From contig NZ_CP165782.1 in assembly GCF_000513895.2 (NCBI RefSeq), positions 2,418,001-2,482,000 on the forward strand: DNA of 64,000 nt, in the 5' to 3' direction. Positions 6,287-11,627 of this stretch are shown piece by piece. The stretch is from Ensifer sp. WSM1721 (GTDB lineage Bacteria; Pseudomonadota; Alphaproteobacteria; Rhizobiales; Rhizobiaceae). The translations under genes were made by a program, and so were the position numbers. Positions within the stretch are counted from its first letter, which is position 1; the number at the start of each line of letters is the position of its first letter. The notes beneath the pieces were generated by a model. It was not told the origin of the DNA. It was given only the letters and a program-made list of their open reading frames with translations, and ran no database searches.

Positions 6287-7072
<786 letters not shown>

Positions 7073-7151
7073 GCGCGGAGCGGGATGGGGAGCGCGGGCG
7101 GTTTCCGCCCACCTCCCCCCTCGGTTCCATCTGGACATCTGCACCTGAATC

Positions 7152-7183
7152 AATGCCGCATCCCGACAGATGCGGCATTTTTC
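7152..7183 (+). terminator. intrinsic terminator of the xylFHG-like operon
   Basis: AATGCCGCATC (7152-7162) pairs perfectly with GATGCGGCATT (7169-7179) and is followed by a T-run. It ends the operon before the tRNA gene. Confidence 0.85.
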
Positions 7184-7341
7184 TTTCGCCGCGAGACGCT
7201 ACGAGCGATGCGCCGTGACCACAGCTCGGCCGAGGAAAGCAAATTTCCCGCACAATCTCCTGCAATTGACCATTGAAGCGGCACGCAAGCTAGGCTAAGA
7301 ACCGCTCACAGCCTGCTTCGGCGGCCCTGCCGCCAACGGAT

Positions 7342-7418
7342 GCACCCGTAGCTCAGCTGGATAGAGTGTTGGATTCCGATTCCAAAGGTCACAGGTTCGA
7401 ATCCTGTCGGGTGCGCCA
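7342..7418 (+). tRNA. tRNA-Arg (anticodon CCG)
   Basis: This is a 77-base cloverleaf including the encoded CCA. The acceptor stem pairs GCACCCG with CGGGTGC, the anticodon loop TTCCGAT gives anticodon CCG, and the T-loop is GGTTCGAATCC. It reads CGG arginine codons, which are frequent in GC-rich genomes. In S. meliloti this tRNA is known as an essential single gene on pSymB. Here its 3' end borders an AT-richer accessory segment, so it probably served as an integration site. Confidence 0.95.
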
Positions 7419-7461
7419 TTTCCCCACGGTCCATACCGAACACATAAGTAACAGAACGTAC

Positions 7462-7670
7462 CTAAGACATGGGTGACAACCTCGTGCCGAACGGGTTGTC
7501 GATGGTTTGCAAAGTTCTCTTCTCCAGGTCGATATATCCCAGATCATAATGCATGAAGGTAACGAGCCAAATGCGGTTGTCGACTTCCTTGAGGCCGAGC
7601 TTCTGGCCTGCGAGCACCGCGATACGTTGATCTCTTGCGGTGGATGCAGATGCCGCCGCAATTAGTCACC
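7462..7670 (-). pseudogene. C-terminal relic of an IS481-type transposase
   Basis: Read on the minus strand, one frame gives VLAGQKLGLKEVDNRIW and on to DLGYID..IDNPFGTRLSPMS, ending at TAG (7462-7464). I recognise this as the conserved end of integrase-core (IS481-like) transposases. The preceding pieces, CGGICIHRK and INVS, lie in the two other frames, so at least two frameshifts separate them. Only about 60 codons remain. The sequence just outside (about 7430-7460, with GTAAC and TACCTAAG elements) resembles the terminal region of such an element. It lies 44 bases past the tRNA and marks the left edge of the accessory segment. Confidence 0.7.
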
Positions 7671-7838
7671 AGCGCATCTCCGTCATGAAAGGGGAAGCGA
7701 TCTCCGGCGGATTACGGAAATAAACAAGCTAGGTCCTAGCTCGATGGCGTTTTAGATGGGAAGAAGCTCAATCTTTTCAATGATGGCATGAGCTGAGCTC
7801 GGAAGCGAGTTAGCATTAGCACCGGTCGCTGTGACAAG
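7671..7838. other. gap between transposase relic and accessory operon
   Basis: I see no gene in these bases. The DNA is AT-richer than the left flank, consistent with decayed mobile sequence. The accessory operon ends at 7839. Confidence 0.5.
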
Positions 7839-8234
7839 TTAACGAAAAGCGGTAATCCTCGTCATGCGGAAAGAATATACTACGCCAACGACGCAAGTGA
7901 GCACTATCCCGGCATAAAACAAGTATAGCGCGTACACAGCACTTTCAGAGATTGGACCTGCGGGACACGCTGTGGCACCGGATCTTAGTAGACCATATGC
8001 GCAAAGATACAGCACTACGTTGCCAATCGCGCCGAGCAGCGTGAGAGTTCCAAAAAATAACGTCCACGACCGATAGGTGTTTAGTCGGTTACGCTCGGCG
8101 ACATTGGGTGTGTCAAATTTCTTCGGGAACGCCATTATAGACTTCCCGAAAGATATGCCTCCCCCCACAGTCACGATTGCCAGCAGTGGTCCCCCGAAGG
8201 ACGAGTTAAGTGCACACCAAATGTCTACCAGCAT
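7839..8234 (-). CDS. small membrane protein, last gene of the RuBisCO-like accessory operon
   Basis: 131 aa, starting with the ATG directly after the TAG stop of the upstream RuBisCO-like gene (no intervening base). Hydrophobic segments near residues 14-34, 55-80 and 100-122 suggest three to four membrane spans. A charged loop (PKKFDTPNVAERNRLNTYRS) lies between the first two. I recognise no family. Immediate coupling to the upstream gene suggests that it works with it, perhaps as a membrane anchor, channel or effector. Base composition is lower in GC than the flanking core genes, as in the rest of the operon. Confidence 0.6.
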   Translation of the reverse strand: MLVDIWCALNSSFGGPLLAIVTVGGGISFGKSIMAFPKKFDTPNVAERNRLNTYRSWTLFFGTLTLLGAIGNVVLYLCAYGLLRSGATACPAGPISESAVYALYLFYAGIVLTCVVGVVYSFRMTRITAFR

Positions 8235-9635
8235 CTACTTGCTCATTTCAAAGGGGGATAATCGCGGAATAGCTAAATTCTCTGACGGGGAAAAATACGT
8301 CAATTCGTTAGAGGACAACTTCGAAGTCCCGACATATGCCTCATCGCATTTTTTTACCAATTTCTTATGAAGATTTTCAGACCACGATCTTCCTGCTTTC
8401 GCTCTTGATTCCGCGGCCGCTTTAGCCACTTCGACACATAATGCGGCGCCAGCTTTTGGGCCGTCCCTATGCAGGGTCACTCCACCTCCCAAAACCCACC
8501 CCACATCGGGGCCTAAAAGCTCATAGTATGCGTGAAGTTGGCCTGCATAAATTCCTCCGGCAATGGTGGGCATCGCCTCATTTCGGCGAACCATATCGCG
8601 GTAACGTTGAACTGCTTGGACGAAACTGTTTTGTGTACTCGAGTCGAGTGATCTTTTCATATGACCAACGTCGGGGCGCCCACCAGGGTATATTACATCA
8701 GCACCCGACAATATAAGTGCTTCTAGTACCTTGTCGGGCGGGACATAGTTCGCCAAAGCCGTCCGCAACAGAGGATAACATGTTATAATTGGAGGTGAGC
8801 CCTGGACATCCACCATTTTTGCTCGACGGACGCTCTGGATAGCATCAATTCCATTTAAGCCTCCATCAATCTTCGATACCACCGGCGTAGGAAGCTGGTC
8901 ACAGAAAGCCTGCAGTTCCTCCAGCAAGACTGACGTAGGAAGTGTGAAGTTTAAGGATAATCGCCCTGAACGCCCGGACCATTGTTTGTCAGCTAAGCGA
9001 GAAGCAATTTCTCTAAGGCTTTCCAAGTGAGCGCGATCTAAGGGTAAAAAACGCGTATCCAGTTCAACGATGTTGAAGCCTGCTGCCATCACGTCAGACG
9101 CGATTGCCTCCAACGCGTCCAGCTTGAAGCCAACTCTCGGCTTAAATGAAAAAGCCAACAGTGGCATGCCATCTTCCAGTGAGAACACCTTTCTTAGATC
9201 GGATATATTTGTGGAGTACGTTCGAAAAAGGCCGGTATGTGCGTCGCGCCAGCTATCGGGTATGGAAATATCTTTGACAACGAAATCACTTACTTTTAGT
9301 GGCGGAAGGACAAATCTAAGCAGATCGCCGGCCAAAATCCCAAAAAGGTGATTGTAGCCCCCTAGCTCCGCCGGAAATAGGTCCGCGGCCAGTTCAAGAG
9401 TAAACTCGAATCGGCCTTTGGCGGGATCAACCACTTCACCAAGCTCAAACCGGGAGAGGCTCTCAAGTGAGCGATCCATCCTGTTCGACCAAAATTCGGT
9501 GTCTATCTCGGCAAACGTTCCAAATAGAGCGTCATCCTTCACTTGCGCGGCTACTGTATAAGCGTCATCCGAGCTGCCTGGCGTGCCATCTGCTTTTTGG
9601 ACAGAGAACTGAATTTTTATCTTAATCCAACTCAA
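8235..9635 (-). CDS. divergent RuBisCO-large-subunit-like protein (form IV-like)
   Basis: 466 aa. It starts with TTG at 9635, whose last two bases overlap the upstream TGA stop; the first internal Met is at residue 53. The order of elements follows the RuBisCO large chain: FPAELGGYN..LAGDLL (87-105), PLLAFSFKPRVGF (158-170, the K175 region), GFNIVELDT (186-194, the K201-D-E region), SGADVIYPGG (310-319), then IAGGIYAG (358-365) and LGGGVTLHRDGPKAGA (382-397), which match the two phosphate-binding glycine loops. The carbamylation triad is replaced (E191, L192, D193, T194), so carboxylase activity is unlikely. K165 is kept. The closest description is a RuBisCO-like protein of unknown reaction, perhaps an enolase or isomerase on a sugar phosphate. 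Confidence 0.72.
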   Translation of the reverse strand: MSWIKIKIQFSVQKADGTPGSSDDAYTVAAQVKDDALFGTFAEIDTEFWSNRMDRSLESLSRFELGEVVDPAKGRFEFTLELAADLFPAELGGYNHLFGILAGDLLRFVLPPLKVSDFVVKDISIPDSWRDAHTGLFRTYSTNISDLRKVFSLEDGMPLLAFSFKPRVGFKLDALEAIASDVMAAGFNIVELDTRFLPLDRAHLESLREIASRLADKQWSGRSGRLSLNFTLPTSVLLEELQAFCDQLPTPVVSKIDGGLNGIDAIQSVRRAKMVDVQGSPPIITCYPLLRTALANYVPPDKVLEALILSGADVIYPGGRPDVGHMKRSLDSSTQNSFVQAVQRYRDMVRRNEAMPTIAGGIYAGQLHAYYELLGPDVGWVLGGGVTLHRDGPKAGAALCVEVAKAAAESRAKAGRSWSENLHKKLVKKCDEAYVGTSKLSSNELTYFSPSENLAIPRLSPFEMSK

Positions 9636-9937
9636 GCGCGGAAAAACCTTACGACCGTTACGGGGCTATTCGATTCAATTTGTGGATAGAACGATTTCAA
9701 TGTACTAACTAGCTGATCCCGATGGCTAAATCCATCCATTCTGGCGTCTTGTTCCGTCAGTTCGCTGAGCCGGCAGAAAAATACCTCTTCGATGACAATC
9801 GGTATTCGGACGTTGCCCGTTATCAGGTCCGCTGGACCGACTTTGTAGTCGCGCTTGCCCATCCGAACGGTGGTGGTTTTCAGCCCAGAGTTAATCAGTG
9901 GAATGAACTGGCTCGCTAGCCGGATCTCTTGCCTCAT
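9632..9937 (-). CDS. ASCH-domain protein 1
   Basis: 101 aa, so essentially one ASCH domain. Features are IRLASQFIPLINSGLKTTTVRMGKRDYKVG near the N-terminus (the SG-K-T-T-x-R substrate-loop motif, residues 17-25), a central beta segment IVIEEVFFCRLSEL, and LTEQDARMDGFSHRDQL before the last strand. ASCH domains belong to the PUA-like fold and bind RNA or nucleosides; E. coli YqfB of this family hydrolyses N4-acetylcytidine. The start overlaps the upstream ASCH gene by 47 bases, and its stop overlaps the RuBisCO-like start. Substrate unknown. Confidence 0.75.
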   Translation of the reverse strand: MRQEIRLASQFIPLINSGLKTTTVRMGKRDYKVGPADLITGNVRIPIVIEEVFFCRLSELTEQDARMDGFSHRDQLVSTLKSFYPQIESNSPVTVVRFFRA

Positions 9938-10289
9938 TAATATCCACCCTAAAGCCGATTACCTTTTGATCGTCATGCCCAATTATCTGCTGCGCTATTT
10001 CAACAGCGTCGCTTAGGCTCTCGGCGATGGGTATAACTTCTGAAAATGGCACTTTTTTAAAGAACTCCGCGATACTTTCTGCAACGACGACCGTGTTCAC
10101 CTCACCCCAAATACTGTCTTTGGTACTGTAACCCCTTCGCAATTCAACTTCTCGGCCAACACACACGCGGGCATCATTGAATTGGCGGCCAAATCGTCTC
10201 AGTTCCCAAAGCTTTTCACCACTTTCAAACCATCTGAAAGGTTCAGATGCGAGAGCGACGAAGAGCCGCTTATGCCGAAACTGGGGCAA
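9891..10289 (-). CDS. ASCH-like protein 2
   Basis: The domain begins at RLFVALASEPFRWFESGEKLWELRRFGRQF, a second ASCH/PUA-like start with the SG-x-K-x-x-E-x-R loop, followed by VGREVELRRGYSTKDSIWG. I place the start at TTG 10289 (132 aa). The frame can also begin at ATG 10418 (175 aa), but those extra codons lie inside the conserved end of the upstream GNAT gene and look non-coding in this frame. Either way it overlaps both neighbours, so translation is probably coupled. It is longer and more diverged than ASCH 1; both may act on related modified bases. Confidence 0.6.
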   Translation of the reverse strand: MPQFRHKRLFVALASEPFRWFESGEKLWELRRFGRQFNDARVCVGREVELRRGYSTKDSIWGEVNTVVVAESIAEFFKKVPFSEVIPIAESLSDAVEIAQQIIGHDDQKVIGFRVDINEARDPASEPVHSTD

Positions 10290-10899
10290 AGTAGTATAGC
10301 ATCCCGGTTCGCTCTCCCCCGCTACGCCTTTCGCTGGATACTGTAGGAGCAACTGTGAATCCTGCGACTTGCAGGAAGTCTCTTTTAAGATATGTTCCTG
10401 CTGTGATCGCTCGGGCATCTCTTATTCTCCTCGTGGTCATAACCTCAACGAATTGAGCGCCAGGGAATAGTCGTGGCGCATATCGACGTGCGACCTTGGC
10501 CAGCGCCGACCCGATACCAAAGCCCTTCAACTCAGGAACAACTGCGACGCGATTAATCATAGTCAGACCCAACTCAGTAACGATCTCGCCTCTTGTCAGT
10601 TCCTCTAGGTCGACATCTAGCTCATGGACTTCGACCAAATGATTCCTTCCGACCGGTGCAGCGTACGCACAACCGCCCCCAAGGACCAGGGCGCCGGCAA
10701 AAGGCCATTTTCCATCCGGCCTACGAAACTTCTGAGGACATAATTGGGAGGTTGGATCGAGATAGCAAGCTATGACTTTCCCACGGGGATTACCCTCACG
10801 GTAATGTTGCTCGCCAATAAAATCTAAAACCGCACCCGAAGCGTTTCGTGGAATTACCCTGAACCCAGCTCCATCCAGTATATCTAAGTGATCAAACAT
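10270..10899 (-). CDS. GNAT-family acetyltransferase, first gene of the accessory operon
   Basis: 209 aa from the ATG at 10899. The acetyl-CoA-binding motif A is clear at about residues 115-130: INRVAVVPELKGFGIGSALAKVARR, with the pyrophosphate loop KGFGIG. An N-terminal part with Cys residues (ACYLDPTSQLCP) precedes it. It likely transfers an acetyl group to an amine, protein or RNA base. Being first in an operon with two ASCH genes suggests an RNA or nucleoside substrate, since GNAT acetylation and ASCH N4-acetylcytidine hydrolysis are opposite reactions. That link is inference. No promoter is obvious; the start faces a gap of about 270 bases. Confidence 0.7.
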   Translation of the reverse strand: MFDHLDILDGAGFRVIPRNASGAVLDFIGEQHYREGNPRGKVIACYLDPTSQLCPQKFRRPDGKWPFAGALVLGGGCAYAAPVGRNHLVEVHELDVDLEELTRGEIVTELGLTMINRVAVVPELKGFGIGSALAKVARRYAPRLFPGAQFVEVMTTRRIRDARAITAGTYLKRDFLQVAGFTVAPTVSSERRSGGERTGMLYYFAPVSA

Positions 10900-11171
10900 C
10901 GCGAATCCCAGCTATATGCTGAAAGCGATATCCAACAATTTTTCCGAAAGCAACGACACCAAAAACCCAGCTGTGGATGGAAGAAACTAGTCGCCCGTCA
11001 ACTCACATTTTTTACGCCATGGATCAACCGGACCAGTTGTCTAGCCAATACCGCACCACCAAATACTTACAATCCGCGCCTTCCCAGCCATCCAATTCCG
11101 ATGAACGTGTCTGGGCCGCTAATTCGGCCCGCTTTTGCTCACGGATACTGAGCTAGTTAGGCGGCGCAATT
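10900..11171. other. right-hand border of the accessory segment
   Basis: I support no gene here. An open frame at 10888-11151 (plus) has unlikely composition and overlaps the GNAT start. A hairpin with GGGCCG/CGGCCC arms (about 11112-11129) is followed by CTTTT. No exact second copy of the tRNA-Arg 3' end is visible, so no attachment site can be defined. Confidence 0.5.
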
Positions 11172-11546
11172 CTAGAGCACCGTTTTTCCGTACTGCCCCT
11201 CCAGCCACGCCTTAAGCGCGACGGCATTGTTCCGCGTCTCATCCCGCGCCGCATAAAGCAGCGTCACCGGCCCCCCTTTCAGCCGCTCACGTAACTCACT
11301 CACCGCCACCTGCGCCGCCTCACCTTCCAACTGCGCCGCATAGGCCTTGCAAAACGCCTCCCAGTCCTCCGGCTTCCCATGAAACCGCTTGCGCAGCGCG
11401 TCGCTCGGGGCGATGTCCTTCAGCCAGAGGTCGATTCGCGCCTTGTCCTTCGCGATACCGCGCGGCCAGAGGCGATCGACGAGAATGCGCGTTCCGTCGG
11501 ACGCTTCCGGCGCCTCGTAGACACGCTTCAACTGGAGTGATGGCAT
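11172..11546 (-). CDS. DUF488 family protein
   Basis: 124 aa, the normal size for the YeaO-type DUF488 family. The pattern is present: LKRVYEAPEASDGTRILVDRLWPRGIAKDKA, then LWLKDIAPSDALRKRFHGKPEDWEAFCKAYAAQL, and the GGPVTLLYAARDETRNNA segment near the C-terminus. Biochemical function is unknown; members are small cytoplasmic proteins. GC content returns to the core level here, so the gene lies outside the accessory segment. It stands alone, with about 80 bases to the next minus-strand gene upstream. Confidence 0.85.
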   Translation of the reverse strand: MPSLQLKRVYEAPEASDGTRILVDRLWPRGIAKDKARIDLWLKDIAPSDALRKRFHGKPEDWEAFCKAYAAQLEGEAAQVAVSELRERLKGGPVTLLYAARDETRNNAVALKAWLEGQYGKTVL

Positions 11547-11627
11547 TGGGCCCCCGCAAGAATTCCCGGGTCGGCCGTCGCCGTCCCCGGGAACGAAACT
11601 GTTTCCATCGAACGTAGCGGACCCTTC

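What the first reader, a model, noticed from the sequence alone, without database searches (positions are those of the whole stretch)
7839..10899. Five-gene overlapping operon GNAT-ASCH-ASCH-RuBisCO-like-membrane protein: candidate undescribed system
Seen: five minus-strand genes with no intergenic space (19, 47 and 4 base overlaps with the starts chosen here, then direct abutment), so translation is coupled throughout. DNA is AT-richer than the surroundings; hand-counted 60-base lines give about 42-55% GC here against over 70% in idhA. Known: ASCH domains are PUA-like RNA/nucleoside binders, one being an N4-acetylcytidine hydrolase; GNATs acetylate. RuBisCO-like proteins act on sugar-phosphate enolates. 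Inference: the set may make, mark or destroy a modified nucleoside or sugar phosphate, perhaps as a defence or conflict system with the membrane protein as effector. I recall no system with this composition.
Basis: partly seen in the sequence, partly recalled or inferred. Interest (0 to 1): 0.88.

Follow-up and report, generated by a model that had tools for sequence, protein, structure and literature searches.

The report
Mobile RuBisCO-like five-gene module, undescribed
Five overlapping genes in a soil bacterium, including one shaped like the plant CO2-fixing enzyme but with a different active site, recur together in other bacteria, an archaeon and a virus of microbes, and look like an undescribed, possibly defensive, molecular system.

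Summary
Five gapless minus-strand genes lie in a 50% GC patch (rest 63%) beside tRNA-Arg: a GNAT-like acetyltransferase, two ASCH-fold proteins, a RuBisCO-like protein (RLP) and a 3-TM membrane protein. They form one conserved module. All five recur in Salinibacter (plasmid, same order), Haladaptatus (an archaeon) and a Myxococcales MAG; a temperate phage carries four (no ASCH2) beside an Mrr nuclease; Actinomadura has a GNAT-ASCH fusion before RLP. 17 of 120 RLP hits share a contig length with ASCH1 hits (control about 1), and RLP and ASCH1 diverge in step (r = 0.79). No PADLOC model matches the module proteins tested. The RLP has the full RuBisCO fold but lacks the carboxylase residues (K201 is Glu; K334, S379 gone) and carries its own invariant set. 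ASCH2 keeps the Lys-Thr-Arg core of the ac4C amidohydrolase YqfB; ASCH1 has Lys-Glu-Arg. I read it as a rare mobile conflict module: acetyl writer, reader, eraser, a new RLP enzyme and a membrane effector. That it is one unit is well supported; function and chemistry are inferred, and a metabolic role stays open.

The parts
10270..10899 (-). GNAT-like N-acetyltransferase, 209 aa, acetyl-CoA-loop-like motif GFGIGSALA
   Evidence: PF00583 E 0.0083, below cut-off; related to L009 (E 6e-6) and L006 (E 5e-7) proteins, and through L009 to the phage GNAT (E 3e-15), which passes Pfam cut-offs
9891..10418 (-). ASCH1: ASCH-fold protein with K69-x-x-E72-x-R74 motif (38 of 38 rows), proposed reader; ASCH domain from about residue 50, an in-frame TTG at 10289 may be the real start
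   Evidence: no Pfam hit; AF2 model, folds; conservation
9632..9937 (-). ASCH2: ASCH protein with YqfB-type K20, T23, R25, proposed amidohydrolase (eraser)
   Evidence: PF04266 E 1.2e-10; K 25/26, T 26/26, R 26/26
8235..9635 (-). RuBisCO-like protein (RLP), 466 aa, new active-site set
7839..8234 (-). MEM: small membrane protein, 3 predicted TM helices, proposed effector
   Evidence: hydropathy; position after RLP conserved
7725..7743 (-). terminator-like hairpin after the operon (7 such sites found in the region, 4.6 expected by chance)
7490..11196 (.). low-GC inserted segment between tRNA-Arg and DUF488; no match in relative G024, which has about 0.64 kb there
7342..7418 (+). tRNA-Arg(CCG), edge of the variable spot (not part of the module)
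   Evidence: spot variability

Best explanation
The five genes are one horizontally moving functional unit (shown by comparative evidence). Most likely it is a conflict or defence module against mobile elements (inferred). Proposed working: GNAT acetylates a nucleobase, nucleotide or nucleotide-derived small molecule. ASCH2, with the Lys-Thr-Arg core of the N4-acetylcytidine hydrolase YqfB, removes the mark and so restrains the system. ASCH1, with the same pocket but Glu in place of the nucleophile Thr, binds the mark without cutting it. The RLP, a RuBisCO-fold enzyme with its own invariant residue set, makes or consumes a phosphorylated sugar ligand. The 3-TM protein carries out the response at the membrane. 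Shown: the components, their co-occurrence, co-divergence, mobility, predicted folds and residue conservation. Inferred: substrates, order of events, effector role and the defence outcome.
For: A GNAT-like protein plus ASCH is present in 6 of 6 loci whose side beyond RLP could be read in full (window, L004, L005, L006, L009, phage G515); L007 shows the ASCH half of the L005 fusion (63% identical), its GNAT half lying beyond the contig end. A 3-TM protein follows RLP in 8 of 9 loci, including a fragment in L083; none seen in L005. 17 of 120 listed RLP hits have the same longest-contig length as listed ASCH1 hits (control mean 0.98, max 3; one of the 17 is Haladaptatus, already read). 9 of 16 GNAT hits lie on contigs of RLP or ASCH1 hits (control mean 0.22, max 1; three of the nine are loci already read). 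RLP and ASCH1 distances: Mantel r 0.793, 0 of 9999 permutations reach it, 21 taxa. Mobility: cargo of a temperate phage with terminase, head-tail adaptor, major head protein, tail protein, endolysin and integrase, next to an Mrr nuclease; plasmid pSR67; archaeal copy with a phage-type integrase upstream and a type IV restriction-like HNH nuclease downstream; variable tRNA-Arg spot in the window's genus. Rarity: no further full-length member. ASCH2 residues.
Against: No PADLOC model matches any module protein tested. ORFs in the same tRNA spot of relatives are mixed, many metabolic or regulatory; 18 PADLOC models matched, one by 3 ORFs and 17 by one ORF each, so at most 20 of 84 and probably fewer than 10. 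ASCH2 is absent from the phage copy and not seen as a separate gene in the actinobacterial form, so the eraser is not essential. The window's ASCH2 has Gln where YqfB has the acid Glu74. GNAT labels of three relatives rest on pairwise homology only (no Pfam hit), so acetyl transfer is not certain. MEM proteins share position, size and topology but little sequence (14-23% outside Rhizobium). No regulator was identified and no promoter stands out. Co-occurrence rests on equal contig lengths, not on reading each contig. The Mantel correlation would also arise from plain vertical descent. There are no functional data.
Confidence: 0.5

Rival explanations
1. Metabolic module: the genes salvage or degrade an unusual acylated nucleoside or sugar phosphate; RLP does an enolase, isomerase or decarboxylase step, GNAT and ASCH add and remove an acyl group, and the membrane protein is a small transporter.
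For: Known RLPs act on sugar-phosphate enolates (own knowledge; papers seen as listing only); YqfB-type ASCH enzymes act on free ac4C rather than RNA (PMC9599836 passages); residues of RLP and both ASCH proteins are strictly conserved.
Against: Rarity and patchiness, carriage by a phage near its integrase, no kinase, phosphatase or dehydrogenase in the module; 3-TM proteins of ~130 aa are unusual as solute carriers (own knowledge).
Confidence: 0.25
2. Addiction (toxin-antitoxin-like) module that stabilises the mobile element carrying it: GNAT, with or without RLP, is a toxin and ASCH2 or ASCH1 the antidote.
For: GNAT toxins of TA systems acetylate aminoacyl-tRNA (PMC9177977, abstract start); GNAT-EVE plus ASCH operons were proposed as TA-like (PMC7641849 passages); plasmid and phage carriage.
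Against: Four to five genes is large for TA; no DUF1778-type antitoxin (Pfam); the would-be antidote ASCH2 is missing in the phage copy.
Confidence: 0.17
3. Chance or loosely shared neighbourhood of genes of unrelated function in mobile islands.
For: Orders differ between lineages (RLP-MEM-GNAT-ASCH in Haladaptatus; two facing groups in Myxococcales).
Against: All five members in three bacterial phyla and an archaeon, GNAT-ASCH and ASCH1-ASCH2 fusions, co-occurrence and co-divergence far above controls.
Confidence: 0.03

Closest known systems
RuBisCO forms I-III and RuBisCO-like proteins (MtnW / DK-MTP-1-P enolase, OiaX)
   Different: K201 is Glu, E204 is Thr/Ala/Ser, K334 and S379 are lost; new invariant N229, K255, D257, Y287, Y316; at most 53 bits against curated cut-offs of 409-700.
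YqfB, N4-acetylcytidine amidohydrolase (ASCH)
   Same: ASCH2 keeps the Lys, Thr and Arg whose Ala mutants are inactive in YqfB (PMC6972931 passages).
   Different: The acid Glu74 is Gln in the window and mixed (E15, D5, Q3, A2, S1 of 26) in the alignment; NCBIfam YqfB model 13.6 bits against a cut-off of 93. ASCH1 has Glu instead of Thr24.
(PIN)-GNAT-EVE plus ASCH systems
   Same: GNAT together with PUA-like ASCH domains in prophages and near restriction systems (PMC7641849 passages).
   Different: No EVE or PIN domain found here; RLP and a membrane protein are added; the word RuBisCO does not occur in that paper's text.
CBASS / Pycsar / type III CRISPR signalling (works-like only)
   Same: Proposed logic of enzyme-made ligand, binding domain and membrane effector (own knowledge).
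   Different: No nucleotide cyclase or CARF domain in the module; no PADLOC hit.

Membership tests
RuBisCO (carboxylating forms I-III) | RuBisCO large-subunit fold | tested here: met
RuBisCO (carboxylating forms I-III) | carbamylated Lys201 with Asp203 and Glu204 as metal ligands | tested here: not met
   Lys201 -> E191 in 32/32 rows, Asp203 -> D193 32/32, Glu204 -> T/A/S; residue names recalled
RuBisCO (carboxylating forms I-III) | loop-6 Lys334 and Ser379 | tested here: not met
   K334 position not conserved (residue 325: G7 K5 T5 S5 N4 H2 are the six commonest of 32; His in the window), S379 -> Ala 32/32
MtnW (DK-MTP-1-P enolase) RLP | scores above the curated model cut-off | tested here: not met
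   22.5 bits against a cut-off of 409
YqfB-type amidohydrolase (for ASCH2) | Lys21, Thr24, Arg26 | tested here: met
   K20 25/26, T23 26/26, R25 26/26; residues from PMC6972931 passages, matched by motif spacing (YqfB spacing recalled, not aligned in a call)
YqfB-type amidohydrolase (for ASCH2) | catalytic acid Glu74 | tested here: not met
   Gln75 in the window; E 15, D 5, Q 3, A 2, S 1 of 26; position matched by spacing to Tyr-Pro, YqfB spacing recalled
YqfB-type amidohydrolase (for ASCH2) | hydrolysis of ac4C | not testable with these tools
   needs enzyme assay
(PIN)-GNAT-EVE/ASCH system | EVE domain fused to GNAT | tested here: not met
   no EVE among Pfam hits of the five window proteins or of the GNAT-like proteins of L009, L005, L048, L004, L006
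Known anti-phage defence system (PADLOC-DB 2.0.0) | match to any PADLOC model | tested here: not met
   0 hits for the 5 window proteins and for 7 module proteins of relatives
Anti-phage defence (function) | reduces phage infection | not testable with these tools
   needs plaque assays
GNAT-DUF1778 type II toxin-antitoxin | DUF1778 (RHH) antitoxin partner | tested here: not met
   no such Pfam hit among the five proteins

The most novel reading that the evidence does not exclude
A RuBisCO-fold enzyme has been recruited into prokaryotic immunity. GNAT and the RLP together make an acetylated, sugar-phosphate-derived second messenger (or a nucleic-acid mark) that ASCH1 reads, ASCH2 erases and a 3-TM protein converts into membrane damage: a signalling defence system built on a chemistry that I know from no other.
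Probability: 0.2. Interest if true: 0.95.

Novelty: categorically new. Interest (0 to 1): 0.75.

Why it matters
If it is one system, it adds a RuBisCO-fold enzyme family with its own invariant active site to a setting (mobile, phage-borne cargo) where my paper searches found none, and gives a concrete operon for testing whether acetylated nucleosides act as signals or targets in microbe-virus conflict. It would also give ASCH domains, most of which have no assigned function (abstract start of PMC6972931), a writer-reader-eraser setting.

Tried and rejected
Looked for known defence models: none for the module. Looked for att-like repeats in 7000-11600: only short, imperfect pairs; no integrase among the six ORFs of the segment scanned. 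Sampled relatives for further copies: one search reported 59 of 200 genomes with a match at E <= 0.001, but only the window's genome matched full-length; the other 58 were weak (about 2e-6 to 6e-9) and confined to the last ~100 residues, so I dropped them as other RuBisCO-fold proteins (not checked one by one); 1 of 397, 1 of 396 and 1 of 294, each the seed genome itself; 0 of 265, with no positive control (I had guessed that genus to be Bradyrhizobium; the tool names nothing). Tested whether the tRNA-Arg spot is a dedicated defence hotspot: 84 ORFs chosen from 182 called (flank genes, many small ORFs and most repeated genes left out); few PADLOC matches, mixed content: not a defence hotspot. 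Phage records: no match. Profile search of ASCH1 against PDB sequences gave only chance hits, of ASCH2 none; only the fold search placed ASCH1. The best PDB matches of the GNAT profile were GNAT enzymes but weak (E 0.056 and above). The large phage ORFs just before the module looked like tail-fibre genes to me, but PHROGs gives them no function. Promoter scan: no more than chance. An ASCH protein with RNase activity is known (PMC5615036, listing); I did not test that reading for ASCH1 or ASCH2. Paper searches found nothing linking RuBisCO-like proteins with ASCH or phage defence; the library holds open-licence papers only, and one 2013 paper on base-modification systems that I asked for by DOI from memory is not held.
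Full report

ONE MODULE. A search of about 5.8 billion proteins gave 137 RLP relatives, 120 listed. DNA around relatives could be read for nine loci, the window included. Salinibacter ruber plasmid pSR67 (L009): GNAT-like 343 aa, ASCH1-ASCH2 in one open frame of 240 aa (annotated only from its ASCH2 half), RLP, MEM 141 aa, in the window's order. Haladaptatus halobius (archaeon, L004): RLP, MEM 141 aa, GNAT-like 329 aa, ASCH1-ASCH2 fusion 221 aa. Myxococcales MAG (L006): RLP and MEM 151 aa facing ASCH2, ASCH1 and a GNAT-like protein of 398 aa. Phage contig G515 (46.9 kb; the RLP gene runs across the end of the record): GNAT 265 aa, ASCH1 142 aa, RLP, MEM 140 aa, no ASCH2. Actinomadura (L005): one 467-aa protein with GNAT and ASCH domains, then RLP; no 3-TM ORF of 100-190 aa on the contig, only a 2-TM one elsewhere on the other strand. 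Thermomonosporaceae MAG (L007): the ASCH half of the same fusion (63% identical; PF04266) at the contig start, its GNAT half cut off, then RLP and MEM 139 aa. Rhizobium hidalgonense (L003): RLP and MEM at a contig end. Piscirickettsia salmonis plasmid (L083): an RLP fragment, a 3-TM protein of 172 aa and a site-specific integrase among IS elements. So a GNAT-like protein plus ASCH is present in 6 of 6 loci fully readable on that side, and a 3-TM protein follows RLP in 8 of 9.

HOW SURE ARE THE LABELS. The phage and Actinomadura GNATs pass Pfam cut-offs; the Salinibacter, Haladaptatus and Myxococcales proteins have no Pfam hit. They are linked by pairwise matches: Haladaptatus-Salinibacter 41% identity, E 8e-82; Salinibacter-phage 23%, E 3e-15; window-Salinibacter 26%, E 6e-6; window-Myxococcales 28%, E 5e-7. 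Hydropathy puts three TM segments at matching places in MEM of six of the seven loci measured; the Myxococcales protein shows a fourth at its start. MEM sequences are only 14-23% identical to the window's outside Rhizobium, so their kinship rests on position, size and topology.

CO-OCCURRENCE WITHOUT READING CONTIGS. Of 120 listed RLP hits, 17 have a longest contig of exactly the same length as a listed ASCH1 hit (271 found, 120 listed, 118 with a length); shifting the lengths by 1-25 in either direction gives a mean of 0.98 and at most 3. One of the 17 is Haladaptatus, already read. Of 16 GNAT hits, 9 share a contig length with RLP or ASCH1 hits (control mean 0.22, max 1); three of these (own genome, phage, Haladaptatus) were already read and had served in the query alignment. 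Equal length is a proxy for the same contig, and the correlation alone cannot tell common descent from co-transfer.

MOBILITY AND RARITY. The phage record has terminase, head-tail adaptor, major head protein, tail protein, endolysin, integrase, RecT-like annealing protein and an exonuclease VIII match. The module lies after the structural genes and large ORFs without assigned function, and before an Mrr-type nuclease and the integrase, a usual place for cargo genes (own knowledge). In Haladaptatus a phage-type integrase lies 3.6 kb upstream of RLP and an HNH nuclease matching type IV restriction models lies downstream; the phage Mrr also matches type IV models. Two cases are few, but both neighbours are modification-dependent nuclease types, which would suit a module built around modified bases. 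In the window's genus the distance from tRNA-Arg to DUF488 runs from 0.7 to 79.5 kb in the 30 of 33 genomes with both on one contig (worked out by hand; the window has 3.75 kb), and G024, the genome most alike here, holds about 0.64 kb of unrelated sequence where the module lies. The family is rare: 5 loci from a pattern-limited scan of 84,980 species genomes, 1 of 72,556 plasmid records with the window RLP as query and a second, partial one with other queries, 1 viral contig (none), none of 50,697 phage records, and no further full-length member in the whole-genome samples.

THE ASCH PAIR. YqfB needs Lys21, Thr24, Arg26 and, less strictly, Glu74 (PMC6972931, passages). ASCH2 and 25 relatives keep Lys (25 of 26), Thr (26 of 26) and Arg (26 of 26); at the Glu74 position there are E 15, D 5, Q 3 (window Gln), A 2, S 1. 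The match to YqfB positions uses motif spacing recalled from memory. ASCH1 has Lys-x-x-Glu-x-Arg in 38 of 38. I infer that ASCH2 is a candidate N-acyl-nucleoside amidohydrolase and ASCH1 a binder that lacks the nucleophile. In the YqfB analogues no nucleic acid binding or RNase activity was seen and free ac4C is held the likely substrate (PMC9599836 passages), so the mark could be on a free nucleotide.

HOW IT MAY WORK. An acetyl mark or acetylated ligand made by GNAT, read by ASCH1, removed by ASCH2 where present, with RLP supplying or consuming a phosphorylated sugar ligand and MEM acting at the membrane. That this serves conflict with mobile elements is inferred from rarity, mobility, phage cargo position and neighbours; against it stand the lack of any known defence model, the mixed content of the tRNA spot and the lack of functional data. 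A metabolic module and an addiction module remain open.

KNOWN OR NEW. Closest by logic are the (PIN)-GNAT-EVE plus ASCH operons (PMC7641849, passages), described there without RLP. Searches for papers with RuBisCO-like plus ASCH domain, RuBisCO-like plus phage defense plus acetyltransferase, and RuBisCO-like plus anti-phage returned none; ten papers hold 'rubisco' and 'antiphage', none by title or abstract start on such a system (listing only). Preprints and closed papers were not searched, so prior description cannot be excluded.

Noticed in passing
window 7419-11171 and the same spot in relatives (G024 0.7 kb, G022 79.5 kb): The interval between tRNA-Arg(CCG) and a DUF488 gene is a highly variable insertion spot in this genus; among 84 ORFs scanned there, one matches a Pycsar cyclase model (E 1.1e-23) and single ORFs match SIR2 or CARF models weakly; the content is mixed.
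   Followed up: partly
G021 C47:40039-40272 and G015 C1:2783931-2784014: Partial extra DUF488 copies lie inside the variable spot of two relatives, perhaps left by repeated insertions.
   Followed up: no
L083 5106-6696: A plasmid of Piscirickettsia salmonis carries an RLP fragment followed by a 172-aa 3-TM protein and an integrase, among IS elements: a decayed relative.
   Followed up: partly
L007 6629-10897: A 1422-aa protein with a CHAT domain lies about 4 kb from the actinobacterial RLP-MEM pair.
   Followed up: no
L009 5110-6738 and 10910-11963: A short HsdM_N-DUF4357 ORF and a second gene annotated DUF4357 follow the Salinibacter module, and a DUF2779/Cas4-like gene precedes it, which suggests a decayed restriction-modification neighbourhood.
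   Followed up: no
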